The notes beneath the pieces were generated by a model. That model saw only the letters and a list, made by a program, of their open reading frames with translations, was not told the origin of the DNA and ran no database searches. Made by a program: the position numbers and the translations under genes. A stretch of DNA of 53,870 nucleotides from Pontibacillus marinus BH030004 = DSM 16465 (GTDB taxonomy: Bacteria; Bacillota; Bacilli; Bacillales; BH030062), in assembly GCF_000425225.1 (NCBI RefSeq), contig NZ_AULJ01000041.1, positions 1 through 53,870 on the forward strand, given 5' to 3'. Position 1 is the stretch's first letter; every line of letters begins with the position of its first letter. Below, in pieces: positions 10,987-53,870 of this stretch.

Positions 10987-11054
10987 CGTAGATTTATACA
11001 TAAAAAAGAAAGCTTAGCAGTTGAGATATAGATAGAAAGATTATTCAGTTAAAT

Positions 11055-11457
11055 GGCAGTTATGTTGAAGACTTGAAACTGAGAGGAGTCCGTTGCATTT
11101 ATGCAGTGCTGGGGGCTATGTTCTCGTGGGAAGGAATAGTATTCCCTTGGGTAGGCGATGGATTCGCTCGGGTAAGCGACGGAATCGCTCGGGTAAGCGA
11201 CGGATTCGCTCGGGTAAGCGACGGAATCCCTCGGGTAGGCGATGGATTCGCTCGGGTAAGCGACAGATTCTCTCGGGTAAGCGACGGATTCGCTCAGACG
11301 ACGGAATCGCTCGGGTAAGCGACGGAATCCCTCGGGTAGGCGACGGAATCCCTCGGGTAGGCGACAGAATCCCTCGGGTAGACGCCGAATTCCCTCGCCC
11401 CCCTGCACTACCGCCTCGCACTTTATCTCGAAACCAAGTCTTCAACAATAGGGGGCT
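11055..11457 (-). repeat. R1 repeat family, copy A (interior replaced by tandem repeats)
   Basis: Both ends match the other R1 copies in inverted orientation. At the upper end the minus strand reads AGCCCCCTATTGTTGAAG and continues GACTTGG and GAGATAAAGTGCG. At the lower end it reads GTTTCAAGTCTTCAACAT, preceded by CAACGGACT. The two large hairpin modules of copies B and C are missing, and the interior is a 21-bp tandem array. It lies between the sleB promoter and the prsW terminator; the region 10987-11480 holds no supportable gene. Confidence 0.85.
11139..11397. repeat. 21-bp tandem repeat array, 12 units plus a partial one
   Basis: Units of GGAWTCSCTCGGGTARGCGA plus one pyrimidine run head to tail from 11139 to 11386, with a partial unit to 11397. 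One unit (11286-11302) has lost four bases. In most units TCGCT and AGCGA are separated by six bases and could form a small hairpin. Four overlapping frames are open because 21 is a multiple of three, but none has a ribosome binding site, and the four-base deletion shifts them. Confidence 0.95.
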
Positions 11458-13254: not shown

Positions 13255-13255
13255 G

Positions 13256-13706
13256 AAAGGCGCAAGTGCCCGTTTAGCAACGAAGGGACTGGACTGAGCC
13301 CGTAGTACGATTAACCAAACTTGCTGATTGGCAAGCCGATAGGCGCAGACAGAAGCTTAGTTGCCGTGGTACTTTAACCTAGAAATTTTAACTCCGTCGA
13401 TTTACTTCTTTGCTAAAATTTCATGTCATCAAATGTGTAAAGGAAACACGATGAGCCTTAGCGAATCGATGTTGACTTATCGTACGGAGAAAGTAATAAG
13501 GAAGATCGGTTAAGTTCGTCACGTCATGTGACAACACCGATCTGACCTACATCCTGTAGGCCCAAGTTCGTCACGTCATGTGACAACACCGATCTGACCT
13601 ACATCCTGTAGGCCCAAGTTCGTCACGTCCTGTGACAACACCGATCTGACCCACGTCGTGTGGGCCCAAGTCCATTCGTTGCTGGGCGCTGGAGCTAGAC
13701 ATCGTA
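13256..13706. repeat. R2 repeat family, copy 2 (full length, with hairpin cassettes)
   Basis: The element starts right after the ansA stop with GGCGCAAGTGCCCG and ends with TTGCTGGGCGCTGGAGCT. The two ends contain a near-perfect inverted repeat: AGCAACGAAGGGACT on the left and the complement of AGCAACGAATGGACT on the right (14 of 15 bases). The middle matches copy 1 at the window start. It carries three tandem 52-bp hairpin units. It fills the space between convergent ansA and bdr together with a terminator, and shows no coding potential. Confidence 0.85.
13503..13667. repeat. Three tandem 52-bp folded units inside R2 copy 2
   Basis: Units run 13512-13563, 13564-13615 and 13616-13667. Each contains two hairpins, GTCAC/GTGAC and CCTAC/GTAGG, and the first is enclosed by AGATCGGT (13503-13510) and ACCGATCT. 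Unit 3 has CCCAC/GTGGG in place of CCTAC/GTAGG, a paired change that keeps the stem. A relative lies in R1 copy B at 27345. Confidence 0.95.
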
Positions 13707-13743
13707 GAGCTACCAACTTATACTTTCCTTACTCCTTAACAAT

Positions 13744-13789
13744 AAAAGTTCCGCTATCCTATCCTTCAAGGTTAGGTAGCGGAACTTTT
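13744..13789. terminator. Bidirectional terminator for ansA and bdr
   Basis: A stem of about 20 bp with minor mismatches (from AAAAGTTCCGCTA at 13744 to TAGCGGAACTTTT) is flanked by A and T runs on either side. It directly abuts the bdr stop codon and so can serve both convergent genes. Confidence 0.85.
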
Positions 13790-26762: not shown

Positions 26763-26780
26763 TTTTACTTATTCTATTAA

Positions 26781-27502
26781 AGCCCCCTATTGTTGAAGAC
26801 TTGGAATCGAGATAATGTGCGTATGGTTCCGTTGCTTTAGTAGAGTGCGGCGGTCTGGGAAACGGGCTGCTTTCCCCGGACGAACGATCGAGCCTCCTCA
26901 TACGCTACGCTTCTTGCGGGGTCTCGCTCGCCCGTTTTTCCGGAGGAGTCAGCCCGTTTCCCAGCCCACCTTAGCCGAATGGTGACTAACGGAACCGCAG
27001 CGATGTAGAGAGGTCGGTGCTTACGGACATTTGTTCCACTAATTTGCTTTTAAATGATCTTTTTTAAGAGCTTACGGACATTCATTCCGTTATTTGCTTC
27101 AAATCACCTTAAAAAAGACTGATTTTCACAAATAAGGTACCATATGTCCGTAATGACTCTTAAAACACCTTTAAAGTTCAAAATAAAGGAACAGATGTCC
27201 GTAAGGTTTAGAACACACCAACCAGGGTCCGTTAATTTCCACAAAAGCAAAGGGGGGAAGGAAAACGGCAAACTCCCGCAGTAGAAAGGGCAGATGAGAC
27301 TCCGCAAGGAGCCTGCGGATGAGGAGGCTGCAAGTAAACAATGAAGATCGACTAAGACCGCCACATCGTGTGGCAACGTCGACCTACCCCACGTCGTGTG
27401 GGGCAGCAGGAGTATTGCCGTTTCACTGACCCCCTTACTCTTATACAAGCAACGGACTTCTCCCAACCAAAGTCTCGAAATCAAGTCTTCAACAATCCTT
27501 CC
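26781..27502 (+). repeat. R1 repeat family, copy B (722 bp)
   Basis: The copy begins AGCCCCCTATTGTTGAAG and ends CAAGTCTTCAACAATCCTTC, its ends being an imperfect 26-base inverted repeat. Module 1 (about 26845-26970) is a long hairpin with arms GGTCTGGGAAACGGGCTG and CAGCCCGTTTCCCAGCCC, bracketed by GGTTCCGTT and AACGGAACC. Module 2 (about 27262-27430) is closed by AAACGGCAA and TTGCCGTTT. Between them lie three or four stretches with TTACGGACAT or ATGTCCGTAA. It occupies the gap between convergent ppa and rsiX. Open frames inside have no ribosome binding site. Confidence 0.9.
27345..27404. repeat. Hairpin cassette inside R1 copy B
   Basis: AGATCGAC, a hairpin GCCACA/TGTGGC (27360-27374), GTCGACCT and a second hairpin CCCCAC/GTGGGG (27387-27403) repeat the design of the 52-bp units at 13503-13667 with paired base changes in every stem. 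Confidence 0.85.
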
Positions 27503-27584
27503 ATATAACGGAATAAGAAAAAACAGTTCCATTAAGTAGCACAAAACTCATTTGTACTACAAAACAGAACTGTTTAGTTATTCA

Positions 27585-28985
27585 TCAAGGTGCTGTTCCT
27601 GGTGGAAAATTAAAAGGCTTTGGATTTAATAAATCAGGAACTTGAATGGCTTCATTTAGATTGTAAGCACCATATCCGTATTCTTGTTGTGGTGCATTAT
27701 TAAACTTTACTTCTTTATACCCATATGATTTAGCTGTCAATAGAATCGCTTCTATCATAGCAAGTGGTTTATCACCAAAGCTAGAATCATTCGTTAAGGT
27801 GATCTGTAATGTTTCCCCTTGACCCTTAATTGACTTGAACGTTGCATTTTGAGGAATAACGGGCTTAACATTCTTAGCTGGTAAACCTTTTTTCATATGG
27901 TTCAAAGCATTAGCAATGGTTTGATCTTTTATTGAAACAGGTGCTAAGAAGCCTGGTCTATTCTCACCATTTTGGTACAACATATAGGCTCTACCACTCA
28001 ATGCTTCAATTTGAATTTCTTTCTTAACCCCCATATTCGGGAAGTTCACGCCAGCGTTTCCATCCCGTTGTAATTGAATCTTTTGAATACCATGTGGTCG
28101 GAACATTTCCTTTAGTGCATAAAGAAGGTTTTGTTCCTTAATCTCCTCTTGTGGCAATGAATAACTTTTCGGGAAATTAGCTTCAACAAGATTCTGATCT
28201 TTTTTCAAATTAAATGTTACATCTTTAAAGGCATACTCTTGAATACCCCACTCGTCGGCTTTTACAGATCTCGCAATTGAATTATATACTTCATTTACAG
28301 AACCCCAATTAGGAGGTGCAATAATGGTAATTGGGATAACCACATCTGAATTAGTACCCATCAATGCTATTGTTGCGAACTTGTCATGAGGTCGTTTAGG
28401 AAATACATAGGATTGCTCAAGCTTAGAGTGTCCACCTATTTCCTGCTTTTTGTTCTCTTCACTAGTGATATTTCCTTCAGATGACTCTGTACTATTTGAC
28501 TCATCTCCTTCTGAAGGAGCTATAGAGTTGATATTTGCATCTTTATTATTTTGGTCACCATTCTGTTGAGCACCATCATCTGCCTTACTGTCAAATGTTT
28601 TTCCCTGATCTTGAGAGCCTGCGCTATCACCATTAGCGGAATTATCGCCACCTTCTGATGCAGAAGACTCACTTTCTTCTTGGAACCTTTCCATGTTCGC
28701 TTCACTTGAGGAATCCTTAGATTCCGCACCATCATTTGCTGTATTATATGTCCCATCAAACAACCAAGACATTGTCGTTATAAGAAACAGCAAGACTGCA
28801 GCCGCTGATATGGTAGTTACTACCCAAGGTTGTTTATAAAATGGTGTTTTATCCGGTTTTGCCGAATTCAAACGAGAGGATATTTTATTATACAGTTCAT
28901 CTGGTGTTTGACTATCTTCAACTTCTGGCATTTTTTGCAGGAGGTTTTGCAAGTCATCTTCGGTGTAGTTCTTATTTTGCTTCAC
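27585..28985 (-). CDS. rsiX: Anti-sigma factor RsiX
   Basis: RsiX holds SigX inactive at the membrane. The 466-residue protein has a cytoplasmic sigma-binding N-terminus (1 to about 50), one membrane span at about 54-76, a long low-complexity Ser/Asp/Asn/Gly/Glu region (about 80-185), and an extracellular C-terminal domain beginning at about residue 190. It is longer than B. subtilis RsiX because of the acidic linker, which would suit a high-salt exterior. The GTG start lies in the last 14 bases of sigX, with GAGGGGAT upstream, so translation is coupled. Confidence 0.88.
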   Translation of the reverse strand: MKQNKNYTEDDLQNLLQKMPEVEDSQTPDELYNKISSRLNSAKPDKTPFYKQPWVVTTISAAAVLLFLITTMSWLFDGTYNTANDGAESKDSSSEANMERFQEESESSASEGGDNSANGDSAGSQDQGKTFDSKADDGAQQNGDQNNKDANINSIAPSEGDESNSTESSEGNITSEENKKQEIGGHSKLEQSYVFPKRPHDKFATIALMGTNSDVVIPITIIAPPNWGSVNEVYNSIARSVKADEWGIQEYAFKDVTFNLKKDQNLVEANFPKSYSLPQEEIKEQNLLYALKEMFRPHGIQKIQLQRDGNAGVNFPNMGVKKEIQIEALSGRAYMLYQNGENRPGFLAPVSIKDQTIANALNHMKKGLPAKNVKPVIPQNATFKSIKGQGETLQITLTNDSSFGDKPLAMIEAILLTAKSYGYKEVKFNNAPQQEYGYGAYNLNEAIQVPDLLNPKPFNFPPGTAP

Positions 28986-29514
28986 TGTTTATCCCCTCCT
29001 TTTGATCCTCTTGCATGAGTTTTTGAAGTGTCTTCATTCCTCGATGTTGTGTTGTTTTCACCTTACTCACGCTCATACCTAATATATCAGCGGTTTCTTG
29101 AATTGACATGGATTGAATATATCGTAATATAATCACACTTTTTTGATCTACGGAACAATGGTCTAAGCACCTATATATCTTCTGGATTTCTTCATTTTGA
29201 AGAGCTACTTCTTCAGGTTCCGGTTGGTCATCCTGAATAAGATGTCCCTTCTCACCCCAGTCAAAGAATTCAAGCACACGATTACGCTTACGCTTTTGCT
29301 TCCTAAAGTGATCAATCGCTACATGACGTGCAATAGAAAAAAGCCATGTTTTTTCACTGCTGTCCCCTTTAAAGCGATCATAAGAATTCATCACTTTAAT
29401 ATATACTTCTTGAACGAGATCCTCAGCTTGTTCCCGGTTTTTTACCATATAAAATAAAAATTGAAAGACGTCTTTATGGTAATTCTCATAGAGCTCTTGA
29501 AAGACCGATTTCAT
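28972..29514 (-). CDS. sigX: ECF RNA polymerase sigma factor SigX
   Basis: This 180-residue ECF sigma factor resembles B. subtilis SigX, which controls cell-envelope modification (dlt, pssA) and responses to cationic peptides. Region 2 contains EDLVQEVYIKVMNSY and EKTWLFSIARHVAIDHFRKQKRK; region 4 contains YIQSMSIQETADILGMSVSKVKTTQHRG. GGGAGG lies upstream of the ATG. It overlaps rsiX by 14 bases, and a matching ECF promoter lies 28-53 bases upstream. Confidence 0.92.
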   Translation of the reverse strand: MKSVFQELYENYHKDVFQFLFYMVKNREQAEDLVQEVYIKVMNSYDRFKGDSSEKTWLFSIARHVAIDHFRKQKRKRNRVLEFFDWGEKGHLIQDDQPEPEEVALQNEEIQKIYRCLDHCSVDQKSVIILRYIQSMSIQETADILGMSVSKVKTTQHRGMKTLQKLMQEDQKEGINSEAK

Positions 29515-29541
29515 TCATGAACCTCCCGTTCATATGATATA

Positions 29542-29567
29542 GTCGTTTATGTATCCAAAAAGTTTCA
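29542..29567 (-). promoter_or_regulatory. Candidate autoregulatory SigX promoter
   Basis: On the minus strand TGAAAC (29562-29567) and CGAC (29542-29545) are 16 bases apart, close to the SigX consensus TGTAAC-N17-CGAC. It lies directly before sigX; autoregulation is known for B. subtilis sigX. Confidence 0.7.
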
Positions 29568-29665
29568 CACTTAATTACTATAAAATATTTTCCTTTATTT
29601 GAATAGGGAAAAATCACCATTTGGTAACTTTATACACCTAATTTCACCACTTTGGGAATAATATA

Positions 29666-29694
29666 GGCGTTGAATCGCTATGGGATTCAACGCC
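29666..29694 (-). terminator. Probable terminator of the B12 uptake operon
   Basis: A perfect 11-bp stem (29666-29676 with 29684-29694, seven-base loop) lies 23 bases past the S-component stop. The T tract on the minus strand is weak (TATATTATT). Confidence 0.65.
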
Positions 29695-29716
29695 TTATAG
29701 AAATCCTTATATTACA

Positions 29717-30262
29717 TTAAAAATGGTTTACTTCTTTTAACGATTTAAAAGATGTTAAATTGTCTTTCTCCAAAAAACGAACAAATAATTTCGAAAGTAC
29801 TGGATATAAAGTAACCATAAAGATGATATTTCCAACTGCATGATACGTATCATACATAAGACCACTTAAGTAATAAGCCCAGAAATGGTTTCCAATTGTC
29901 CCATAGGTTAGTGACATAACTAAACCGTAACCATACCCTGCAAAAGCACTGAACAATGCTAAAACCCAAATAGGAATTGATTTACGATACTTACCAATAA
30001 GACCACTAATCAATCCAATGATCCCCCAACATAGTATTTGAGGTAGTGTCCATATTCCCATTCCTAGTACTAGGTTAGATAATATTGTAGATAAAACAGC
30101 TAAAATAACCCCTTCAACTGGCCCTAACCATATTCCACAAATGATGACTAAGGTGCTTACTGGTTGAACATTTGGTAGATAGAATAGACTAGAAAATAAT
30201 ATCCTTCCTACTGTAGCCAGAGCGGCTAGCATAGCCAGTAAAGTTAGTTTTTGCGTTTTCAC
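29717..30262 (-). CDS. ECF transporter S component, predicted cobalamin or precursor uptake
   Basis: This 181-residue membrane protein has five to six spans and the usual S-component N-terminus (MKTQKLTLLAMLAALATVGR), where the Ala-rich first helix docks the energising EcfT subunit. A cobalamin riboswitch upstream of the operon and the transcobalamin-like lipoprotein four bases before it point to vitamin B12 or a precursor. It could correspond to CbrT (cobalamin) or CblT (alpha-ribazole); I cannot tell which. The EcfA/EcfT energising module is not in the window and is probably the shared housekeeping one. The start is a GTG preceded by GGGAG. Confidence 0.85.
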   Translation of the reverse strand: MKTQKLTLLAMLAALATVGRILFSSLFYLPNVQPVSTLVIICGIWLGPVEGVILAVLSTILSNLVLGMGIWTLPQILCWGIIGLISGLIGKYRKSIPIWVLALFSAFAGYGYGLVMSLTYGTIGNHFWAYYLSGLMYDTYHAVGNIIFMVTLYPVLSKLFVRFLEKDNLTSFKSLKEVNHF

Positions 30263-30266
30263 ACGA

Positions 30267-30692
30267 TCACTCCCAGCTGTGCATATCCCACACTACTTTA
30301 TCACCTGGCTCTAGTTCGTATTCCTTCGCTCCTACTTGTGCTTCTTTTCCATTTACAGTGTAAAACCAAGCCATTTTCTCGCTTTGTTCAGCTTTTACAC
30401 CTTCAATTGTGGTGATAAATCCTCCACCACTTGCTGCTTTAATGTCGAAGTTATTTTTCATAACCTCCATAACAGAAGTACCTTCTTTAATTTCGACTTC
30501 CTTTTCAGCAATAACTTTTTCTCCATTGTTTTGAGATACAGTTACTTGAACAACTTCCTGATTTTCTTCTTGTTTCGCTTCATTGTTGTTCTCATTACTT
30601 GTTGTCGGTGACTCTTCTCCACCACACGCTACTAGTGCTCCTAGCATAAATAAACTCACGATCAACACACGTAACATTTGTTTCATCTTCAT
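30267..30692 (-). CDS. DUF4430 (transcobalamin-like C-terminal domain) lipoprotein
   Basis: A signal peptide ends in the lipobox LVAC with the lipidated Cys23. After a Glu/Asn-rich linker, residues about 48-140 form a DUF4430 domain (GTSVMEVMKNNFDIK, TTIEGVKAEQSEKMAWFYTVNG, VGAKEYELEPGDKVVWD). This domain resembles the beta domain of transcobalamin and intrinsic factor. With the cobalamin riboswitch upstream and the S component downstream, a surface role in capturing cobalamin or passing it to the transporter is a reasonable inference. AGGAG lies seven bases before the ATG. Confidence 0.85.
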   Translation of the reverse strand: MKMKQMLRVLIVSLFMLGALVACGGEESPTTSNENNNEAKQEENQEVVQVTVSQNNGEKVIAEKEVEIKEGTSVMEVMKNNFDIKAASGGGFITTIEGVKAEQSEKMAWFYTVNGKEAQVGAKEYELEPGDKVVWDMHSWE

Positions 30693-30771
30693 CCAACCTC
30701 TCCTATAAAATTTAGTGGTTTCATTGCCTATTGGAGAGGATCAGACGTTGGACGTCCAGGAATCCTAAAAG

Positions 30772-30805
30772 AAAAAGCTTTTCCCGCTATGGAGAAAAGC
30801 TTTTT
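30772..30805 (-). terminator. Terminator in the riboswitch expression platform
   Basis: AAAAAGCTTTTC (30772-30783) and GAAAAGCTTTTT (30794-30805) form a perfect 12-bp stem followed on the minus strand by CTTTTAGG. It lies between the cobalamin aptamer and the lipoprotein gene, as expected for transcriptional control by B12. Confidence 0.85.
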
Positions 30806-30900
30806 GAGTACGACAGTTATTCCATGATCATTTATATTAAAATATTCATGTTATATCCCGGTCGTCTCAAACGCTCAATCCTCGAAGCTTTGAAACGCTA

Positions 30901-31060
30901 GATTCAGGCAGGTCTACTGACTTGTGTATCACCCTACTCCGGGCCCTTCCCATACGGCTTGCCGCACAGTGGAACTCCCTTTCGTACACACTTACAGTTG
31001 CGAGGACAGTTCTGGCTTTTAACCAGATTCCCTTTTAAGCTCAAATATCGTCTGAGCACC
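30901..31060 (-). ncRNA. Cobalamin riboswitch aptamer
   Basis: Read on the minus strand, the aptamer core is complete and in order: GGTGCTC, AAAAGGGAATCTGGT, GCCAGAACTGTCC, CGCAACTGTAAG, the B12 box variant TTCCACTGTG, TGGGAAGGGCCC, GAGTAGGGTGA, and GTCAGTAGACCTGCC. These are the signature blocks of the class I cobalamin riboswitch (RF00174 type). A pairing CGTTTCAAA/TTTGAGACG follows it, then the terminator. It should lower expression of the lipoprotein and S-component genes when adenosylcobalamin is abundant. Confidence 0.95.
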
Positions 31061-31090
31061 TTCATCCTACATATTGTGTTTTCATTAAAT

Positions 31091-31118
31091 ATATTAGCAT
31101 ACCTTACCATCGAAGCAA
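31091..31118 (-). promoter_or_regulatory. Promoter of the riboswitch operon
   Basis: On the minus strand TTGCTT (31113-31118) and TAATAT (31091-31096) are 16 bases apart, with an extended -10 TG one base before TAATAT. It separates this operon from resE. Confidence 0.65.
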
Positions 31119-31173
31119 AGGTACATTTGTGCAAATTTGTTTCATAGGGAACAAGATTGTTCGCCAAATCCGG

Positions 31174-32937
31174 CTATCTTTCGCTATATTTTGGGATTTT
31201 AAACATGAAAGTCGTCCCTTCATCCACTTTACTGTGAACGGAGATAATCCCTTTGTGTGCTTCTACAATATTTTTCGCAATAGCTAACCCAAGGCCTGTT
31301 CCCGATTTACCTTCTTCTCTTTTTCTAGATTTGTCACCTTTATAAAAACGCTCAAAAACAAAAGGAAGATCTTCTTCTGCAATTCCAGCTCCGAAGTCTG
31401 TAACAGCAAACTGAATATACTCTTCAAGACTCTCAATTGAAACGGATACATCTCCGTTTGATTCTGTATGTCGAATTCCATTATCAATTAAATTTGTAAG
31501 GACTTGTTCAATTCGATCTGGATCCATAAGCGTAGATTCGACATTATCTGCAATGTTTAGAGACAAATTTACATCATGTTGGTCAGCCATACCTTGAAAC
31601 TTCTTTGTGATCCTTTCGACAAAGTCTGGTATATAAACCGATTCTTGATTTAATTGAATATGTCCTGCTTCCATTCGAGCAAGGTCCAACAACTCATTAA
31701 CCAATCGTCCCATTCTTAGGGATTCATCATAAATGATCTGAGCAAGTTCATTTTTATCTTCTGGACTTTCTGCTACATCATCTACAATCGCTTCACTATA
31801 CCCTTGTAACATAGAAATGGGTGTACGTAATTCATGAGATACATTGGCTATGAAGTCTTTACGAAGCTTGTCCAATCTTCGCTCCTCTGTCATATCCCTA
31901 AGCACAGCAACTGCACCACGAACAAAAGAGCGGTCGTAAAGCGGGGTCATAATAACAACCCAACTACGCCCTTGAATATTTAGTTCAGTCATTACTTCTT
32001 TTTCTAAAGAAATGACCTCTTGCAACATTTTCTGCAGTTCCTCAGGTAATTCTTTTCCTTGAGAATAACCATAATTTTCGTAATGCCATGCCTCAATGAA
32101 TTGTTCAGCAGGCGGATTGGTAACAAGCATATTACCATTTCGGTTCAATGTAATAACGCCATCTGCCATAGATCGCAAAATACCCGATAACTGCTCTTTC
32201 TCTTGATTAAGTGCATTAATATGGAACTTTAATTGTCGACCCATACGATTAAATGCCATAGCTAATTCTCCGATTTCATCATGAGTTAAAATCGGAACTT
32301 TTGTATTAAATTCGCCCCTTGCTAACTCAAATGCCCCTTCTCTCATCTTACGAAGTGGCGCAGTAATCCTAGTTGATAAGAAGAAAGCAAATATAGTAGT
32401 TAAAATAATAGCTATGCCAGCACCTAATAATATAATCTTAGTCGTCTGTGAAGTGGTTTTTTCAACAAACTTCAATGATTGGTAAACATACACAGCTCCA
32501 CCGTCTCGCTGAAGAGGGTGACCCACAATCATGATGTTGGTATTCGTAGTAGGTACAACTTCTTCCTGTTTAATTGATTCACGTTGTGTTAACACTTGCG
32601 ATAATAATTCATGATGAAATATCCATTTCACTGGTACATTTGGAATCGAATCATTAAATCTGTCCGATTCCCAATAATCATCCTGATCAAAGGCAATGAC
32701 TACACGACTAGATGGATCAATAACTTGCTCCGCGATGGACTGAGCTAACTCACGGTCTTCATGTTCTTCTACAATAGTGGAAATCTTTTTAGCTGACTGC
32801 ATTAACTCTTGTTCAGCTTGAAAGACATGGTAATTTTCAAAGAACTCAAGTAACAGTACAGTTAATATAAATAAAACAAAGGATACTAGAAGTAAAATGG
32901 TAAACCATAGCTTACCAACGACACTCCGCCAAAACAT
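31174..32937 (-). CDS. resE: Sensor histidine kinase ResE
   Basis: ResE phosphorylates ResD under oxygen limitation and in response to nitric oxide. The 587-residue protein has a membrane span near the N-terminus, an extracytoplasmic domain (about 35-165), a second span, a HAMP domain (about 190-245), a PAS domain (about 250-350), HisKA with the phosphorylated histidine in VSHELRTP, and a HATPase domain ([19 protein letters not shown]). Its start codon shares one base with the resD stop (TAATG), so the pair is translationally coupled. Length equals that of B. subtilis ResE. Confidence 0.94.
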
Positions 32938-33653
32938 TAGTCACCCACAACCTCAAATTTATATCCAACACCCCATACAGTTACGATCATTTTCGCTGCA
33001 TCTTTTGATACCTTGCTTAACTTTTCCCGTAAACGTTTTACGTGTGTATCGACTGTACGTAGATCTCCGAAAAATTCATATTGCCATACTTCCTTAAGAA
33101 GTTCCTCACGGTCAAAGACTTTATCAGGAGATTGTGCCAAGAATAGTAATAATTCATATTCCTTTGGTGTCAAACTTACATTCTTACCATCTGCTAAAAC
33201 ACGATGGGCATCATTGTCTATTGTAAGATGTTCAAACTCAATAACATCTTTAGCTGCTGTTTCTGTTTGTAAGAATTTCGTTGAGGAAGAACGACGTAGG
33301 AGTGCTTTCACACGTAGTACGACTTCTCTTGGACTAAATGGCTTAACGATATAGTCATCTGTACCAACCTCAAACCCTTGGACACGGTTAGATTCTTCTC
33401 CTTTAGCCGTAAGCATAATAACTGGAGTAGCCTTCTTTTCACGTAACTCTTTACAAACCTCAATTCCATCTATACCAGGTAACATTAAATCTAATAAAAT
33501 TACATCAAAATCTTCTTCTAATGCGATTTTTAAAGCTTCTTCTCCATCTTCCGCCTCTGTTACTTCAAATGCTTCTCTTTCAAGATACATTTTAATTAAT
33601 CGGCGAATACGTTCCTCATCATCAACTACTAAAATTTTTGATCCCTGTTCCAT
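32937..33653 (-). CDS. resD: Response regulator ResD
   Basis: This OmpR/PhoB-type regulator activates genes for anaerobic and aerobic respiration, including resABC and nitrate respiration genes. The receiver domain (residues 1-120) has the phosphorylated Asp in [10 protein letters not shown] and the Lys in VKPFSPRE; the C-terminal winged helix (about 140-235) contains [13 protein letters not shown] and [22 protein letters not shown] precedes the ATG. It lies downstream of resC with a terminator between them. Confidence 0.95.
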
Positions 33654-33692
33654 GTCAGAGCTCCCCCTTTTGCTTATTCATTCTTAATGTGT

Positions 33693-33724
33693 AAAAAAGG
33701 CTACAAATCTAACGATTCGCAGCC
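33693..33724 (-). terminator. Terminator between resC and resD
   Basis: An 11-bp stem with two G-T pairs (33699-33709 with 33714-33724) is followed on the minus strand by six T. It separates resABC from resDE while allowing some readthrough, as reported for B. subtilis. Confidence 0.85.
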
Positions 33725-33738
33725 TCTTTATTGTAATT

Positions 33739-34941
33739 CTAGGCATAAGAGTGTAATCCTGCAATAATTAGATTTACTGCAATCAGGTTAAACATAATGA
33801 TTGCAAACCCAATCACGGCCAACCAGGCTGATCGCTCTCCATGCCAACCGTTGGAAAGTCGCAAGTGTAAAAACCAGGCATAAAACAACCAAGTAATTAA
33901 AGCCCAGACTTCTTTAGGATCCCAACCCCAAAACCGGTTCCAAGCTTGTTGAGCCCAGATCATCGCAAAGATTAGAGCACCAAGCGTAAATACTGGGAAA
34001 CCAATTGCAACTGCACGGTAAGATACTTCATCAACAAGGTCTGGATTAACACGATGTAGGGCAGGTTGAATCCAAGCCGCTACTCTCTTACGTAAAATAA
34101 GTAATGTGAGACCATACAGCGCTAAGCCTGTCACGATTGACCAAACAAGTGTGTTTAACTTTCTAGCTGCTTGCTCACCTTTCAACCAACTCGGAACCTC
34201 TACCAATGGTTTCATTGCCCCTTCGGTAAGTTGCTTATTGTCATGAGGTCCGAATAAAGGAGGTAAAGTGTATTCCGATTGTACTGTAATTTCCTTACCA
34301 TTATTATCAGTAGCTTGAAATTCAAACACATTTTCATATCCACCTGCACGAAAGGCCATCGTAATAAGAACAAATCCTATCGTCGCATAAAGTGTATAAA
34401 TAATGAATTCTAACCAAAACGTTTTCTTATTCAGTGAGGATTGATCAATTGTGCGTATTAAGTAAATAAGACCTGCAGCAAAGCTGACAGCTAAAATCGC
34501 TTCACCTATCGCTGCTGTTGTAACGTGAATGTATAGCCAATGTGTTTTAAGCGCTGGTATTAAAGGTGAAATTTCTCTTGGAAACATCGATGCATATGCA
34601 ATAATTAATAATGCCACAGGCAATGTGAATAGCCCTAGCAAGTTAAACCGGTAGATAAAGTAAATGACAATAAACGCAAATACAAACATCATACCGAAGA
34701 AGGTAGTAAACTCAAATAAGTTACTTACAGGTGCGTGTTGGCTTGCAATCCACCTTGTAATAAAATATCCTACCTGTGAGATAAAGCCTATAATGGTAAT
34801 CGCAATACCGATGTTACCGGCCTTTGATTGCTTAGTGGCTTTTTCTTGTTCTTTAATTGTTGCGGCAAAAAAGACCGTTGCAATTAAATAAAGGACAAAG
34901 GCAGTGTATAACAAATAACTGCTTATTGTACTTAGTTCCAT
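33739..34941 (-). CDS. resC: Cytochrome c biogenesis protein ResC (CcsA)
   Basis: ResC with ResB forms the System II heme handling and ligation complex that attaches heme to c-type cytochromes outside the membrane. The 400-residue protein has about eight membrane spans and the conserved heme-binding segment [16 protein letters not shown] near the C-terminus, with histidines in flanking loops. The loop around residues 200-245 is long and polar. It follows resB by 34 bases. Confidence 0.94.
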
Positions 34942-34975
34942 TCCTATTCCTCCTTAACCTCCTTTATCAAGTCGG

Positions 34976-36610
34976 TTATTCTTTACGTTCAAGCTGATCA
35001 TTAGGCTCAGGAATATTTGTCCCAGCAATAACTTGTTGGATATCTCGTTTTAATCCATACCAGTTTTTGTTCGTGTGTCCTGCTATCCATAAGCCATTTT
35101 CACGAGGTTGCACCCAAATACGTCGATGATTCCAATACATTCCTTGAATCACACCAATCATAAAGATGAACCCACCTATACCAAGTATCGGTAGAGTGAG
35201 GTCTTTAGTAATGGTTAAACCTGTAACATCTCGCATTTCAACATTTGTTATCCCAAGCTTATAGTCATTTGACTCAGATGGATCAATGTTAAACCCTACT
35301 CCTAACATGCTTACTTCAGGATCATTTGGATTTTCAGGTGTATAAATATTAAATACTAAAGCTGGATTTCTAGGATACTTCGACTCTGTAATCGGTTCAC
35401 CATTCTCCATTTTAAATTCAGGATAATATTTATCTAGAACAACTCGATAGCCATTATCAAGCTTATATTCTTGTTTAGGATCAATGAGATCCACTGTGAT
35501 CTCACCAAGTGACTCTTCGTTTGGATCGTCTTTTTCGTGTAACTTAAATGACATCGATTTAAATTCATTTAATTGATAAGTTGTTTGATAGAGAGCGAAT
35601 CCATCGATCTTTAATGGTCGGTTTACTTGAATAGATCCTTCTTTCACCTTTTCTAGCTCAGGTTGTGCACCTGGAAGCGAATCATCGGTACGTTGATAGA
35701 GAACGGCATTCGTTTGATAATTTTTCGGTACACTGCCACCTTCTTTTTGAATGGCTTCTTTATATCGTTCATCGTTTTCATCATACATTTCTACAAAGAA
35801 ATCCTCATTCTTTATGTAGTATTCTCCTTCTGTACCTGGAATCACTTCTGTTTCCCCTTCACGAACCCACAATTGTTCATCTACGTACATTGCAGGTACA
35901 AATCGAAGAAGGGCTCCGATTAAGAAGATGATAAGACCAATGTGATTTACATAAGGTCCCCACCTTGAAAACCGTCCTTTTTCTGCTAATAGGTGGCCGT
36001 CTTGTTCCATTACTTTAAACCGACGTTCCTTAAGCTGCTTTAAAAGAGTTTCTTTCTCTTCATCTGTAACATGTTCAGCTTCTCCAAAGACGCGTTGACG
36101 CTTTAGAAAGGACTCGTGTCTTACTGGTTTCTGTTTCTTCAAAGCTCTATATAAAGGGACTACTCGATCAATACTACAAATAACTAGAGAAATTCCAATT
36201 GAAGCAATTAGCAACATATACCACCAGGAACCATATAGATCATGGAATCCAAGTTGGTAATAGATTTTCCCAGCTAATCCATAGTTCACTTCGTAATACT
36301 CATCGGCAGGCAGAGAAGATTGGTTATTCATCTCTTGAGGGAAAATGGTTCCTAAAGACGAAGCCAATAATGTTATGGCAATCAACCATACGCCCACTTT
36401 AACGGATGAAAAGAAATTCCATATTTTATCTACGAACGATTTATTATAGGTTTGCGAACGGCGGGCACTTCCATCATAACGCATGTTTAGAAGCTTATTA
36501 TGTTTATTACCATCGATATGTTGGTTTTGTTCCACAGGCTTCCCGCATGATTCACACAGCACAGTACCCTCAGGATTTATGTGTCCGCATTCACACTTAA
36601 TTTTGTTCAT
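34976..36610 (-). CDS. resB: Cytochrome c biogenesis protein ResB
   Basis: ResB is the System II partner of ResC. The 544-residue protein starts with a small zinc-ribbon-like cysteine cluster (Cys6, Cys8, Cys19, Cys22). It then has membrane spans at about 70-90 and 125-145, a third near 215-235, a large extracytoplasmic domain, and a final span near 470-490. The N-terminal cysteine motif is also found in Bacillus ResB. It starts 30 bases after resA. Confidence 0.93.
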   Translation of the reverse strand: MNKIKCECGHINPEGTVLCESCGKPVEQNQHIDGNKHNKLLNMRYDGSARRSQTYNKSFVDKIWNFFSSVKVGVWLIAITLLASSLGTIFPQEMNNQSSLPADEYYEVNYGLAGKIYYQLGFHDLYGSWWYMLLIASIGISLVICSIDRVVPLYRALKKQKPVRHESFLKRQRVFGEAEHVTDEEKETLLKQLKERRFKVMEQDGHLLAEKGRFSRWGPYVNHIGLIIFLIGALLRFVPAMYVDEQLWVREGETEVIPGTEGEYYIKNEDFFVEMYDENDERYKEAIQKEGGSVPKNYQTNAVLYQRTDDSLPGAQPELEKVKEGSIQVNRPLKIDGFALYQTTYQLNEFKSMSFKLHEKDDPNEESLGEITVDLIDPKQEYKLDNGYRVVLDKYYPEFKMENGEPITESKYPRNPALVFNIYTPENPNDPEVSMLGVGFNIDPSESNDYKLGITNVEMRDVTGLTITKDLTLPILGIGGFIFMIGVIQGMYWNHRRIWVQPRENGLWIAGHTNKNWYGLKRDIQQVIAGTNIPEPNDQLERKE

Positions 36611-36640
36611 TGCGTTACCCTCTCAATCTTCTAGGTGCGC

Positions 36641-37192
36641 TTAAGATTCTGGTACGATCTCTTTTAAATGACCTTCTAATTTATCAAGTGTCAAGCCACC
36701 AACGACTTTTTTGACAACTTCGCCATCCTCATTAATGAAAAATGTAGCTGGTAAGTATCCCACTCCATAGGCGTCATTCACTTGATACGTTTTATCATGA
36801 AGAATTGGAAATGTCAGTCCATACTCGTTTAAGAAATCTTCTATAACTAGTCGACTATCATCTAAACTAACCGCAACGATCTCCACACCTTTTTCTTTAT
36901 ACTCAGGGTACAACTCTTGCATATATGGCATCTCTTTTTTACAAGGCGGACACCAAGTACCCCAGAAGTTTAACATAACACCTTTACCTTCTAATTCCCC
37001 CAGTGACATAGTCTCTTGTTCCATATTTACTGTTTTCAATTGAAAGTTAGGTGCTTGATCTCCTTCTTGAATGACTTCTTGATCATCCTTGGTTAATGTG
37101 GAGTACAATGCAAAGACCGTTGCAGCAGCAAGTACAATCAATACAATAACCCGGAAGATAAGCCTATTTTTCTTTTTGTTTTTATTAGCCAT
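36641..37192 (-). CDS. resA: Thiol-disulfide oxidoreductase ResA
   Basis: ResA is a membrane-anchored thioredoxin that reduces the heme-binding cysteines of apocytochrome c. One N-terminal span (about residues 10-30) is followed by the thioredoxin fold with active site WCPPCKKEM and the specificity region YLPATFFINEDGEVV. A GTG at 37201 is in frame, but the ATG at 37192 has GGGGGAG eight bases upstream. It begins the resABC set, 57 bases after rluB; no clear separate promoter is visible in that gap. Confidence 0.94.
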   Translation of the reverse strand: MANKNKKKNRLIFRVIVLIVLAAATVFALYSTLTKDDQEVIQEGDQAPNFQLKTVNMEQETMSLGELEGKGVMLNFWGTWCPPCKKEMPYMQELYPEYKEKGVEIVAVSLDDSRLVIEDFLNEYGLTFPILHDKTYQVNDAYGVGYLPATFFINEDGEVVKKVVGGLTLDKLEGHLKEIVPES

Positions 37193-37248
37193 GCTTGTCA
37201 CTCCCCCTGGTCATTATATCATTGAAAACGGTTTGAAAATTTGAAAGT

Positions 37249-37989
37249 TTAGTTAACATTTTCACTCGCAGCCTTTTTTAACATCTTAACTTCATATGGA
37301 GTTAGCTCTCGACTTTCTCCTGGCTGAAGCCCTTGAGTCGTTAAAAAGGCATATCGTTCACGTTTTAATTTAGAAACCGGATATCCCATTGCCTCAAACA
37401 TTCTGCGGATTTGACGGTTTTTTCCTTCATGTAGGATCATTTGAACGATCGCTGTTCCTTTTTTTCGATCGGTAGATAAAATTTTCGTGTGAACAGCTTT
37501 CAGAAATTCCCCATCAACTTCGATCCCTTTTTTCAATTCATGTAGTTCTTCTTTAGTTGGAATACCTTTTAACTTCGCCACATATACTTTATCAATACCA
37601 TGTTTCGGGTGCATAAGAGATTGTGCAAATTCACCATCATTGGTAAGAATAATGAGTCCTGATGTATCATAATCCAGTCGGCCAACAGGATAGATACGTT
37701 GTGTTACTTGTGGGAAAAAGTCTGTAACGGTTTTACGACCCTTGTCGTCTTCCACACTCGAAATAACTCCACGAGGTTTATAGAGCAAATGATAGACAGG
37801 CTCTTCTTTTTCAATTGGAATACCATTTACTACTACTTTTTCGTTAGGACCAACCTTGGTTCCAAGCTCCGTGACAACCTTTCCGTTCACCTTCACTTGA
37901 CCATCTTGTATGAGCTCTTCAGCTTTTCTCCTTGATGTAAAACCACTATTTGCAATTACTTTTTGTAAACGTTCTCGATTTTCAGACAT
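37249..37989 (-). CDS. rluB: 23S rRNA pseudouridine synthase RluB
   Basis: The enzyme modifies a uridine in helix 80-93 of 23S rRNA. An N-terminal S4 RNA-binding domain (SRRKAEELIQDGQVKVNG) precedes the RsuA/RluB catalytic domain with GRLDYDTSGLIILTNDGEF, where the aspartate after RL is catalytic. The frame extends to 38076, but the ATG at 37989 has AAGGAG eight bases upstream and matches the family N-terminus, giving 246 residues. It lies between spmB and resA as in B. subtilis. Confidence 0.94.
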   Translation of the reverse strand: MSENRERLQKVIANSGFTSRRKAEELIQDGQVKVNGKVVTELGTKVGPNEKVVVNGIPIEKEEPVYHLLYKPRGVISSVEDDKGRKTVTDFFPQVTQRIYPVGRLDYDTSGLIILTNDGEFAQSLMHPKHGIDKVYVAKLKGIPTKEELHELKKGIEVDGEFLKAVHTKILSTDRKKGTAIVQMILHEGKNRQIRRMFEAMGYPVSKLKRERYAFLTTQGLQPGESRELTPYEVKMLKKAASENVN

Positions 37990-38074
37990 AAATGAATCTC
38001 CTTTTTCGTTCGTATGAATTGGTTTCCCCATATTAACTGGGCGCGTACATTCTTTTTTATTTCCAATAGAAAAC

Positions 38075-38106
38075 ACTACTTCCGACCTTTATAGGTTAAA
38101 AGTAGT
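38075..38106 (-). terminator. Possible terminator of spmB
   Basis: ACTACTT and AAGTAGT form a 7-bp stem around a long loop, followed on the minus strand by GTTTTC. The signal is weak. Confidence 0.4.
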
Positions 38107-38185
38107 TGTTTCCTGTAACTTACCTCTTTATAACGCTTTGTTTAAAGGCTTATTAAAAAGCACCCTACCTATCTTAACGCTTTTA

Positions 38186-38716
38186 TTAACCAAAAACAAT
38201 TGAGACTACTATGATTGAAGCCATTATACCAATAAAATCAGCTAATAGTCCAACCTTCAAGGCATCTCCCATACGTTTAATTCCTACGGCTCCAAAATAA
38301 ACAGTTATGATATAAAGAGTAGTGTCTGTACTACCTTGCATCGTAGAAGCCAATCGACCAATAAACGAATCTGGACCATGTGTTGATATAAGTTCAGTTG
38401 TCATTCCCAAGGCTGCTGTACCAGAAATCGGACGAACCATAGCTAATGGTACAATATCACTTGGGATCCCTATCATACTCAGAATAGGATTTAGCATAGA
38501 AACAAAAGCTTCCATTGCACCAGATGCACGAAAAATGGCAATCGACACCATCATCCCTAATAAAAAAGGAAGAAGGGATATCGCCATTTGTACCCCTTCC
38601 TTACCACCTTCGACAAACGTCTCGTAAGTCGGAACTTTCTTCCAGGTCCCTACTAGTAACACAAGTAAAATAATGCAAGGAATTAGCCACGTACTTATGG
38701 TAGTAACAATACTCAT
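38186..38716 (-). CDS. spmB: Spore maturation protein SpmB
   Basis: SpmB with SpmA is needed for full dehydration of the spore core. The 176-residue polytopic protein has about five spans with nucleoside-recognition (Gate) domain features (SGAMEAFVSMLNPILSMIGIPSD, MVRPISGTAALGM as regions). Its start overlaps the spmA stop by four bases. Expressed in the mother cell with dacB in B. subtilis. Confidence 0.94.
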   Translation of the reverse strand: MSIVTTISTWLIPCIILLVLLVGTWKKVPTYETFVEGGKEGVQMAISLLPFLLGMMVSIAIFRASGAMEAFVSMLNPILSMIGIPSDIVPLAMVRPISGTAALGMTTELISTHGPDSFIGRLASTMQGSTDTTLYIITVYFGAVGIKRMGDALKVGLLADFIGIMASIIVVSIVFG

Positions 38717-39303
38717 GATTCATTCCTCCGTGTACGAATGATGTGAAAAATACGGTCAACGATTATGGCTCCCAAAGTTGATATAAGTGTAGCAATTATC
38801 GTAGTACCTACAATTTCAGTCGGTGAAATGGAATCGTATTTCATTCGAATAGCAATAACAGTCGTCGGAATTAACGTAACACTCGACGTATTTATAGCTA
38901 AAAATGTAATCATAGATCGACTAGCACGATCCGAACCACTTAATTTCTTCATCTGTTCCATTGCCTTTATGCCCATTGGTGTAGCTGCATTGCCAAGCCC
39001 AAAGAGGTTTGCAGATATGTTGGATAAAATATAACCCATAGCTGGATGATCAGGTGGGATGTCAGGGAAAAGACGTTTTATAAAAGGTCTAAATATTTTC
39101 GACATCCCCTCAAGTAAACCAGAGGCTTCTGCAATCTTCATTAGACCAAGCCAGAAAACTAATACACTAATCAGTCCAATGGATAACATAACGGCATCAT
39201 CAGCACTTTTAAAAAGTGCTTCGTTGACATCTTCCATGGTCCCATTGATCATGGCATAAAAAATACCGATTGCTGCCATCGCCACCCATATGAGGTTAAC
39301 CAT
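38713..39303 (-). CDS. spmA: Spore maturation protein SpmA
   Basis: This 196-residue membrane protein carries the Gate domain (KIAEASGLLEGMSKIFRP, NISANLFGLGNAATPMG). It works with SpmB in spore core dehydration and heat resistance. Its start immediately follows the dacB stop with no gap, so dacB-spmA-spmB is one tight operon. Confidence 0.94.
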   Translation of the reverse strand: MVNLIWVAMAAIGIFYAMINGTMEDVNEALFKSADDAVMLSIGLISVLVFWLGLMKIAEASGLLEGMSKIFRPFIKRLFPDIPPDHPAMGYILSNISANLFGLGNAATPMGIKAMEQMKKLSGSDRASRSMITFLAINTSSVTLIPTTVIAIRMKYDSISPTEIVGTTIIATLISTLGAIIVDRIFHIIRTRRNES

Positions 39304-40407
39304 TTAATAGGCTCCTGCCATTGATTTGATGACCTGAATAAGTTGATCAAAATAGGATCGATCCTTCTCTTCAGGAGATGCCATGATCGAAACGGCCTCA
39401 ATCTGTTCTCCATTGACAGTATATATGGCTTTTCCAACTATTGATGAAAGAGGTGATAATCCGCCTGTATTTGTTGTTATAACTCTTTCAGATAATTGAC
39501 CTACCTCTTCTTTTGTAAGAGGAACTCGAACATCTTCCCATAAATACCCCATTGTTTCCTCATCACCTGAGTCCAGGTCGTATTTGCCCTCTTTACGAAT
39601 TTCTTTCATATCATACTCTTTAAATCCCCATTCAAATGAATGACTATGGTCATTCCAATCATCCGGTCCATTCAGCGTTACCATTATAAGTTCCATATCA
39701 TCTTTTTTAGCCGTTGTAACTAATGTACGACCAGCGGTTTTCGTATATCCTGTCTTCCCACCTGTACAGTATTCATAGTATTTCGTTAGCAATTTATTTT
39801 TGTTGCCCCAAGCGTAAACCCTTGAGTCTGCTTTATAAGTAGTTGTTCCAGAGATTTTTCGAAATAAGTCATTTTGCATTGCATAACGCATTAGAAGTGC
39901 CATATCATAAGCTGTGGAATAATGTCCTTCCTGGTCTAATCCATGAGGGTTGGCAAAGTTCGTATTGGTCATACCGATCCAATCAGCTTTTTCATTCATT
40001 AAATGAACAAAGCCCTCGACACTTCCTCCCACCTTTTCAGCAATCGCGATTGCTGAATCATTTCCAGAACGTAGCATGAGCCCATACACTAAATCTTTTA
40101 GTAACATCTTCTCTCCTTGTTCGAGGTAGATGGATGAGCCCTCTGTATAAACAGCTTTTCGTGAAGCAGTAGCTTTTTTATCTAAATTACCAGATTCAAT
40201 TGCAACAATCGCAGTCATTATTTTAGTGATACTTGCTATATTTCGTTTTTCATGCGCTCTCTTTTCCATCAAAACTCGTCCCGTTTCTTGTTCCATGAGC
40301 ACAGCATTACGCGCTGAAACATTCGGCTTAGACGTTGCATAAGCCTGTAACGGGGAGATTAACATGGTTAAGCACAATGTTAGTATTATGATCGACTTTC
40401 GTTTCAA
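39304..40407 (-). CDS. dacB: D-alanyl-D-alanine carboxypeptidase DacB (PBP5*)
   Basis: This sporulation-specific low-molecular-weight penicillin-binding protein trims peptides and sets cortex cross-linking. A signal peptide (about 1-24) leads to the three serine peptidase motifs: SITK with the nucleophile, SGN in LRSGNDSAIA, and KTG in GGKTGYTK. The C-terminal domain of about 100 residues and an amphipathic end anchor it. The TTG at 40407 is chosen: GGGAGG lies seven bases upstream, inside a longer reading from an ATG at 40422. A sigma-E-like promoter lies upstream. Confidence 0.92.
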   Translation of the reverse strand: MKRKSIIILTLCLTMLISPLQAYATSKPNVSARNAVLMEQETGRVLMEKRAHEKRNIASITKIMTAIVAIESGNLDKKATASRKAVYTEGSSIYLEQGEKMLLKDLVYGLMLRSGNDSAIAIAEKVGGSVEGFVHLMNEKADWIGMTNTNFANPHGLDQEGHYSTAYDMALLMRYAMQNDLFRKISGTTTYKADSRVYAWGNKNKLLTKYYEYCTGGKTGYTKTAGRTLVTTAKKDDMELIMVTLNGPDDWNDHSHSFEWGFKEYDMKEIRKEGKYDLDSGDEETMGYLWEDVRVPLTKEEVGQLSERVITTNTGGLSPLSSIVGKAIYTVNGEQIEAVSIMASPEEKDRSYFDQLIQVIKSMAGAY

Positions 40408-40440
40408 GGGTAGTCCTCCCATTCAATATGCTTTGTACAT

Positions 40441-40467
40441 ATTTATGCTAGGAGGACAGGCATATGA
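40441..40467 (-). promoter_or_regulatory. Candidate sigma-E promoter of dacB-spmAB
   Basis: On the minus strand TCATATG (40461-40467) and CATAAAT (40441-40447) are 13 bases apart, near the sigma-E form KMATATT-N14-CATACANT. The operon is sigma-E dependent in B. subtilis. Confidence 0.5.
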
Positions 40468-40509
40468 ATGATTTTGATACAAAACGTGTAGATATCCTAT
40501 TCCACTATA

Positions 40510-41003
40510 GCCCCCTATTGTTGAAGACTTGGAATCGAGATAAAGTGCGTATGGTTCCGTTGCTTTTGTGCAGATAGGCGGGCTGTGGAACGGGTTGCTT
40601 TCCTGCGGACGAAGCGCCGAGCCTCCTCATTCGCAAGCTCTCTGCGGGGTCTCGTCACTCCGTTCTTCCGCTGGAGTCAACCCGCTCCACATCCCACCTT
40701 TGCCGAATGGTGACTAACGGAACCGCTCATGACAAGGGTCTGAGCAACTTCTCTGAATATGATTTCCAATCAATTTGAGATGGGAAAGTCCAAATTATGG
40801 TCCGTTAGTCTCTATAAACGCGTGGAGGGAAGGAAACGGCAAACTGTCGTGGTAACAAAGGGAAGACGAGACCCCGCAGGCACGAGGAGGCTCGGCTTTT
40901 CTTCCACAACAGGCTTGCCGTTTCACTGACCGGAACAAATTACTCAACAGCAACGGACTTCTCCCAACCAATATCTCGGAATCAAGTCTTCAACAATCCT
41001 GCC
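40510..41003 (+). repeat. R1 repeat family, copy C (494 bp)
   Basis: The copy begins AGCCCCCTATTGTTGAAG and ends CAAGTCTTCAACAATCCTGC. It has both hairpin modules of copy B: module 1 with arms GGGCTGTGGAACGGGTTG and CAACCCGCTCCACATCCC inside GGTTCCGTT/AACGGAACC, and module 2 closed by AAACGGCAA/TTGCCGTTT. The central part and the hairpin cassette of copy B are missing. It fills the gap between the sodF terminator and the dacB promoter. Confidence 0.9.
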
Positions 41004-41039
41004 AGATTGTTGAACAACATTTACCCCTTATAATATAAA

Positions 41040-53706: not shown

Positions 53707-53796
53707 GTAATGTGGAGATGTAAAAATTTTGTATTATGAGGAGTGAGCAGGAGAATTCAGAAGAGGAGCTGTTTTGTAACCTTCTTATTCCATAAT

Positions 53797-53870
53797 AGCC
53801 CCCTTATCTTGAAGACTTGAAATCGAGATAAAGGGCGTATGGTTCCGTTGCTTTTGTGGAGAGCGGCGGG
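53797..53870 (+). repeat. R1 repeat family, copy D (left end, cut by window edge)
   Basis: AGCCCCCTTATCTTGAAG is followed by GACTTGAAATCGAGATAAAG, then GTATGGTTCCGTTGCTTTTG and GGCGGG. This is the same order as the left ends of copies B and C, with two changes in the first 18 bases. It lies upstream of the spoVA promoter. The rest is outside the window. Confidence 0.88.

What the first reader, a model, noticed from the sequence alone, without database searches (positions are those of the whole stretch)
26781..41003. R1: a dispersed element with large hairpins whose arms covary between copies
Copies B (26781-27502) and C (40510-41003) share ends and two long hairpin modules, not just sequence. 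In module 1 the aligned 18-base arms differ at positions 7, 9 and 16, and in each case the partner base in the opposite arm has changed to restore pairing. In module 2 two more positions are compensated (CTCC with GGAG in B, CTGT with ACAG in C). The structure, not the sequence, is therefore under selection or is maintained by the copying mechanism. There is no transposase and no coding frame. It may be a MITE-like passenger, a structured RNA, or a nucleoid or recombination site. I have seen similar blocks in other Bacillaceae but cannot name a described family.
Basis: seen in the sequence. Interest (0 to 1): 0.8.

Follow-up and report, generated by a model that had tools for sequence, protein, structure and literature searches.

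The report
Mobile repeat carrying paired RNA hairpins
These repeats are small gene-less mobile-looking elements that carry two copies of a folded hairpin found widely in Bacillus relatives, whose shape has been kept while its letters changed; what spreads them, and whether the hairpin works as RNA, is still open.

Summary
B and C are TIR-bounded, gene-less elements. Each carries an inverted pair (T1, T2) of one hairpin: conserved internal loops joined by stems of free sequence. A model built only from other genomes finds three of the four modules in B and C (E 6e-18 to 8e-9; T2 of B is interrupted) and at least 134 copies in this genome. The core motif occurs in 167 of 299 genomes of the order. 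Covariation beats shuffles, slid partners and a tree-based null (234 two-sided cells against a null maximum of 80). Stem changes shared by several copies keep pairing more often (46 of 55) than changes private to one copy (35 of 75); wobbles lean to one strand (41 G.T to 24 A.C by anchored counts). Best reading: a MITE-like non-autonomous element whose hairpin is selected as single-stranded nucleic acid, perhaps RNA, mainly in lineages that propagate. Rfam tsr24 is a sub-threshold relative on the same strand. The same ends also carry a 21-bp minisatellite (copy A); at that very site a sister species carries hairpins instead, and its B and C interiors are inverted. No transposase or target duplication was found and no RNA-seq was available; RAYT linkage was tested and not supported.

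The parts
26769..27516 (+). Copy B, whole element with outer ends (TTATTC...GCCCCC end at left, TGGCAG-type end at right)
   Evidence: end alignment, (29 rows, 27 elements); strict end detection
26825..26996 (-). B module 1 (T1 hairpin, GGTTCCGTT...AACGGAACC; sense strand is minus)
   Evidence: model match 26860-26959 minus, 68.2 bits, E 5.9e-18
27020..27205 (.). AT-rich palindrome nested between the modules of B (arms 77 nt, 70% complementary)
   Evidence: absent from C; a similar stretch is present at both orthologous sites of G236 (read)
27226..27457 (+). B module 2 (T2 hairpin), right arm interrupted by a Bacillaceae-1 unit
   Evidence: only a partial model match 27297-27329 (E 0.17)
27336..27402 (+). 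Rfam RF01690 Bacillaceae-1 RNA inside module 2 of B
   Evidence: 67.8 bits, E 2.2e-10
40497..41017 (+). Copy C, whole element with outer ends
40553..40724 (-). C module 1 (T1 hairpin; sense strand is minus)
   Evidence: model match 40588-40687 minus, 64.3 bits, E 8.4e-17
40799..40958 (+). C module 2 (T2 hairpin)
   Evidence: model match 40834-40923 plus, 37.7 bits, E 7.5e-9
11054..11457 (-). Copy A: same ends as B and C, interior is a 21-bp minisatellite (11141-11397, 12.4 units), no T1/T2 hairpin; the orthologous site of G236 carries both hairpins between such ends
   Evidence: G236 site:
53785..53870 (-). Start of another R1-type element at which the contig ends
   Evidence: similarity to G236 element DNA on the minus strand

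Best explanation
R1 copies B and C are non-autonomous, MITE-like mobile elements of about 500-750 bp, bounded by roughly 36-bp imperfect terminal inverted repeats (TTATTCNNTTAWANGNC...TTGTTGAAGACTTGR). Shown: the cargo is an inverted pair of one structured hairpin family found widely in the order, at over a hundred copies in some genomes. The hairpin is a rod: stems of free but covarying sequence, joined by conserved internal loops. Shown: pairing is conserved far beyond chance and beyond shared ancestry. Inferred: the pairing is selected on one single strand (the one reading GAGACTCC...GAGACCCC...GAGGAGGCTC...GGAAAGCG), perhaps as RNA. Inferred: selection acts chiefly on lineages that go on multiplying, so structure is needed for propagation, while resident copies decay. 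Inferred: a factor in trans recognises the outer ends, since the same ends also carry an unrelated minisatellite. Inferred: exchange or inversion through the inverted ends reshuffles interiors in place.
For: Homology: a model built from 64 other genomes finds T1 of B, T1 of C and T2 of C and at least 134 places in this genome. Spread: core motif in 167 of 299 order genomes, reversed-pattern control 0 in every listed row. Covariation; it reaches into the conserved loop (GAGATCCC goes with GAGGAAGCTC). Strand: anchored counts over all stem pairs 41 G.T to 24 A.C (p 0.046), O4-O10 alone 30 to 13 (p 0.014); in five within-genome sets, shared states 18 to 3 (p 0.0015), private 16 to 11 (p 0.44). 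Propagation: shared states paired in 46 of 55, private in 35 of 75 (Fisher p 2e-5). The annotated strand of tsr24 is the same. Ends as unit: 15 of 22 end-defined elements here carry T1 and T2, 6 lack both and carry the minisatellite. At site A, G000 has the minisatellite and G236 the hairpins between matching ends. Presence/absence in the genus: B site filled in 2 of 8 genomes, C region in 4 of 8.
Confidence: 0.5

Rival explanations
1. Host RNA function: each copy is a structured RNA or UTR element (an sRNA like tsr24, or a 3' UTR stabiliser), and selection acts at every locus.
For: Strong covariation; wobble lean to one strand; sub-threshold relative of a named S. aureus sRNA; many private compensations in G036; among 60 loci the upstream neighbour points into the hairpin in its own sense in 39 of 60, and neighbourhoods are convergent in 22, divergent in 9.
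Against: Private changes are often unpaired (40 of 75). Over both neighbours the hairpin strand is not oriented to genes (65 same strand, 55 opposite, p 0.41). Core-motif counts differ widely between genomes of one genus (0 in G161, 102 in G236), and the B site lacks the element in 6 of 8 congeners.
Confidence: 0.22
2. Single-stranded DNA hairpin recognised by a tyrosine (Y1/HUH, RAYT-like) transposase, as for REP elements: structure is kept because the enzyme reads the folded top strand.
For: A one-strand wobble lean also fits ssDNA. PF01797 proteins with weak scores occur in 22 of 24 genomes chosen, mostly for being hairpin-rich.
Against: No core motif within about 1.5 kb of any of 60 Y1 loci (30 of them from those chosen genomes); the model found 1 of 60 (L186), which I take as chance but did not compute. 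G234 and G169 have hairpins and no PF01797 match; G020, G026 and G028 have PF01797 matches and no core motif.
Confidence: 0.12
3. Mutational artefact: template switching or arm-to-arm gene conversion in palindromes makes arms match without selection.
For: Long inverted arms; in-place inversion of interiors.
Against: Conserved mismatches and asymmetric loops persist in the 64-genome alignment (anchors were required by the search). Copying would repair them. It predicts no G.T/A.C asymmetry. Most private changes stay uncompensated outside G036.
Confidence: 0.08
4. Short retroelement: the hairpin RNA is itself copied into DNA (SINE-like) by a reverse transcriptase in trans.
For: Selection looks single-stranded and tied to propagation; hairpins without R1 ends occur in other genera.
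Against: No reverse transcriptase link was tested; no tail or insertion polarity was looked for; R1 itself has DNA-transposon-like TIRs.
Confidence: 0.05

Closest known systems
Rfam RF02577 tsr24 (S. aureus small RNA)
   Same: Aligned framework: outer stem, GAGACUCC/GGAAAGCGAAG internal loop, inner stems, same strand.
   Different: Below the gathering score (38.5 of 50 bits at best); the GAGACCCC/GAGGAGGCTC region falls in a stretch not shown aligned; not reported for B or C themselves.
Rfam RF01690 Bacillaceae-1 RNA
   Same: Present as an inserted unit in 9 of 20 R1 loci examined, B included.
   Different: A separate structure; C lacks it; 1 of 20 hairpin loci of other genomes has one nearby (L133).
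Bacterial MITEs (bcr1, RUP, NEMIS, ERIC; a P. gingivalis MITE holding a minisatellite)
   Same: TIR-bounded, no genes, intergenic, structured; minisatellite cargo as in copy A (PMC3733652 passages; PMC4596501 search listing only).
   Different: bcr1 is confined by its paper's title to the B. cereus group (reference entry only; the paper is not held). The hairpin here spans many genera and sits in inverted pairs.
REP/BIME with RAYT
   Same: High-copy intergenic hairpins; inverted pairs resemble BIMEs (recalled).
   Different: Much longer rod with conserved internal loops; no link to Y1 genes.
Stem-loop families Bhal-1/Bhal-2 and Sta-1 to Sta-4 (PMC2267715)
   Same: Structured repeats in B. halodurans and S. 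aureus (passages with tables seen).
   Different: No sequences seen, so identity could not be tested.

Membership tests
MITE | Terminal inverted repeats | tested here: met
   About 36 bp imperfect; 29 rows from 27 elements; arms in B and C
MITE | Short, no coding capacity | tested here: met
   404, 723 and 496 bp for A, B, C; ORF over B has no Pfam hit; A and C were not searched
MITE | Multicopy, dispersed, absent at some orthologous sites | tested here: met
   130 matching stretches, 134 hairpins; B site without element in 6 of 8 congeners
MITE | Target site duplication | tested here: inconclusive
   None recognised by eye; no closely related empty site
MITE | Autonomous partner with same ends | tested here: inconclusive
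   TIR pairs in the 20 G000 regions lie 0.3-0.7 kb apart, too short for a usual transposase; 10 ORFs beside the TIRs of L109-L114 give no transposase in Pfam; viral contigs 0 exact hits. Not exhaustive
RF02577 tsr24 | Score at or above gathering (50 bits) | tested here: not met
   38.5, 29.2 and 23.9 bits in three of nine loci; no hit in B or C
RF01690 Bacillaceae-1 | Score at or above gathering (35 bits) | tested here: met
   Only for the insert 27336-27402 in B, not for the R1 hairpins
REP/RAYT | Hairpins flank the RAYT gene | tested here: not met
   0 of 60 loci by motif, 1 of 60 by model
Structured ncRNA family | Covariation above a phylogenetic null | tested here: met
Structured ncRNA family | Transcript detected | not testable with these tools
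   No RNA-seq available

The most novel reading that the evidence does not exclude
The hairpin is a Bacillales-wide selfish RNA that multiplies through its own folded transcript (a bacterial counterpart of SINEs, or an RNA-guided mobile hairpin). R1 is a composite in which two such RNAs were captured, in inverted pair, by DNA ends that now move as a MITE.
Probability: 0.07. Interest if true: 0.92.

Novelty: new variant of a known kind. Interest (0 to 1): 0.6.

Why it matters
A single structured hairpin family reaches 188 core-motif copies in a genome and occurs in over half of the order's genomes sampled, yet the only Rfam match I found is a distant, sub-threshold S. aureus RNA. Its many paralogous copies per genome allow a clean question: is repeat structure kept for the host at each site, or for the element's own spread? 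The private-versus-shared test used here can be run on any repeat. If the one-strand lean holds in larger data, the molecule under selection is single-stranded, which would point to an undiscovered RNA- or ssDNA-based mobiliser. The repeats also seem to break assemblies and reshuffle between sites.

Tried and rejected
RAYT/REP: Y1_Tnp genes were sought in 299 order genomes (221 with a match) and in 24 chosen genomes (22 with a match). Sixty loci were checked for the hairpin: 0 by motif, 1 by model (L186). Rejected as the main explanation.

Autonomous IS with the same ends: in 20 G000 regions, TIR pairs are too close together to hold a usual transposase (those ORFs were not searched in Pfam). 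Ten ORFs beside the TIRs of L109-L114, from four other genomes, give no transposase family; one has no Pfam family. Viral contigs: 0 exact TIR hits. Several contigs end inside TIR-bearing elements, presumably because the repeat breaks assembly.

Phage carriage: no match in 50,697 phage records; 3 viral contigs with the core motif were not followed up. Plasmids: 18 of 72,556 records match the hairpin, none match R1. Five of them (H12-H16) show the same partial match; in the two opened (H12, H16) it lies beside zwf/gnd genes, which looks like passive carriage.

Invertible cassette: interiors of B and (where alignable) C are inverted against G236, but orientation to the ends is mostly fixed (14 against 1 in G000, 14 against 1 in G236 by strict detection; C of G236 escapes that detection). 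A regular invertase switch is unlikely; exchange between subfamilies or rare inversion fits. One search (same question, looser motifs) gave noise and was replaced.

Literature: strings GAGACCCCGCAGG, GAGGAGGCTCG and reverse complements gave 15 papers, none relevant judged by title; REP with Geobacillus and hairpin gave 0; MITE/bcr1/Bacillaceae (20 of 283 listed), tsr24 (2 irrelevant papers), RF02577/tsr25/tsr33, intergenic-repeat terms, Bacillaceae-1. That I know of no paper naming this hairpin rests on these searches only.

Changed on re-check: the strand count now includes all anchored stem pairs, which is weaker than the subset first quoted, so confidence in the best explanation went from 0.55 to 0.5 and the host-function rival from 0.20 to 0.22.
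Full report
What is there. B (26769-27516) and C (40497-41017) are intergenic elements. B lies between an inorganic pyrophosphatase gene and a convergent gene with no Pfam family; C lies between a D-Ala-D-Ala carboxypeptidase gene and a superoxide dismutase gene. Their ends are imperfect inverted repeats. Over 29 rows (27 elements; L095 and L096 appear twice with an inner right end) the left flank reads TTaTTccA.tAaAGCCCCCT and the right flank tcCTGCCAtat.actgaAtAa, next to TTGTTGAAGACTTG (TTGTTGAAGACTTGR exact at 55 places in this genome; TTGTTGAAGACTTGG with up to 2 mismatches at 194, against 28 for the reversed pattern). The two ends can be told apart. No target duplication was recognised by eye.

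The cargo. Each full element holds two hairpins in opposite orientation, T1 and T2. In the loci fetched from this genome I found 63 distinct modules, 33 of type T1 and 30 of type T2. B differs from C by an AT-rich palindrome (27020-27205) and a Bacillaceae-1 unit (27336-27402). Bacillaceae-1 occurs in 9 of 20 R1 loci examined (11 hits), and in 1 of 20 hairpin loci of other genomes, about 200 bases from the hairpin (L133).

The hairpin family. The core GAGACCCCGC-N(4-30)-GAGGAGGCTC occurs in 167 of 299 genomes of the order, up to 188 per genome, with the reversed control at 0 in all listed rows. In a sample of the class, 57 of 398 genomes match: 18 of the same order (this genome included), 28 of family f49, 9 of f62 with one copy each, and 2 others (my count of the rows). 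Named hosts of one exact variant include Priestia, Cytobacillus, Mesobacillus, Rossellomorea, Neobacillus, Gottfriedia, Alkalihalobacillus, Pseudalkalibacillus and Domibacillus; one Spirochaetales MAG may be contamination (61 stretches). Flanks in other genera show hairpins without R1 ends. A model from 64 such sequences, one per genome, finds T1 of B (68.2 bits, E 5.9e-18), T1 of C (64.3, 8.4e-17) and T2 of C (37.7, 7.5e-9); T2 of B, interrupted by Bacillaceae-1, gives only a partial match (E 0.17). It finds 134 places in this genome, a lower bound because 150 of 394 candidates were scored. Over 60 Y1-transposase loci it gives 1 match.

Relative in Rfam. tsr24 (RF02577) aligns on the same strand with the same outer framework (38.5 bits, gathering 50; E 2.4e-7 for a 301-base search; hits in 3 of 9 loci). 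It is not called in B or C. The tsr RNAs were named as sRNAs in S. aureus USA300 (PMC7392542, passages seen); nothing on tsr24 itself was read.

Mobility and exchange. In G236, whose flanking blocks are 91-94% identical, the A, B and C positions are also filled. The interior of B (673 bp, 85.7%) and the alignable part of C (212 columns, 72%) match on the opposite strand to their flanks. At A, where this genome has a minisatellite, G236 has a T2...T1 hairpin pair between a TGGCAG end and a GCCCCC-type end (model 69.1 and 33.8 bits): same site, same ends, other cargo. At seven further sites compared, interiors are same-way with indels (L024, L088, L026), inverted or of another subtype (L002, L007), or replaced (L060, where ours is gapped by N); L092 stops at a contig end. 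B's position lacks the element in the other six congeners (no model hit; one stray weak TIR-like match in L209). C's region holds a same-ended element in G076, in reverse orientation, and one such end in G136, where the locus stops; it shows none in the other four, although L217 has a hairpin elsewhere in the locus. Interior orientation to the ends is mostly constant (14 to 1 in both genomes). Six of 22 strictly defined elements here, copy A among them, carry a 21-bp minisatellite instead of hairpins (four with assembly gaps). The ends are thus the likely mobile unit and the interior is cargo.

Placement. Among 60 hairpin loci of other genomes, neighbours are convergent 22, tandem 29, divergent 9. 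The left neighbour reads toward the hairpin in its sense in 39 of 60, the right one away from it in 26 of 60; over both, 65 genes agree with the hairpin strand and 55 disagree (ORF calls of my own). This looks like avoidance of promoters more than a fixed regulatory position.

Verdict. The element is MITE-like, and the hairpin is a widespread structured family with one distant, sub-threshold Rfam relative. Mechanism of spread is inferred, not shown.

Noticed in passing
window 13494-13671: Tandem array of about 3 Bacillaceae-1-type units (period 52); the unaligned G236 counterpart of 13254-13744 is 114 bp instead of 490 bp.
   Followed up: partly
window 30890-31078: Cobalamin riboswitch on the minus strand, ordinary.
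   Followed up: no
family f62 genomes (G313, G419, G449, G458, G485, G525, G548, G572, G588): Each has exactly one core-motif match; could be one conserved single-copy locus and the hairpin's origin. Places were not listed.
   Followed up: no
L107 1414-1479 and L108 1552-1619: In another family (f2) a Bacillaceae-1-like unit sits beside or inside the arm of the same hairpin (RF01690 38.9 bits in L107, 26.6 below threshold in L108), as in copy B: a repeated association between two structured repeats.
   Followed up: partly
L402, L403, L404: Three viral contigs hold the core motif.
   Followed up: no
L340, L341: The same zwf/gnd-linked segment with a hairpin lies on a B. subtilis and a Paenibacillus urinalis plasmid, in the latter near a Tn3-family transposase.
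   Followed up: partly
G095: 100 core hairpins but no Y1_Tnp candidate at all, against a Y1 mobiliser.
   Followed up: no
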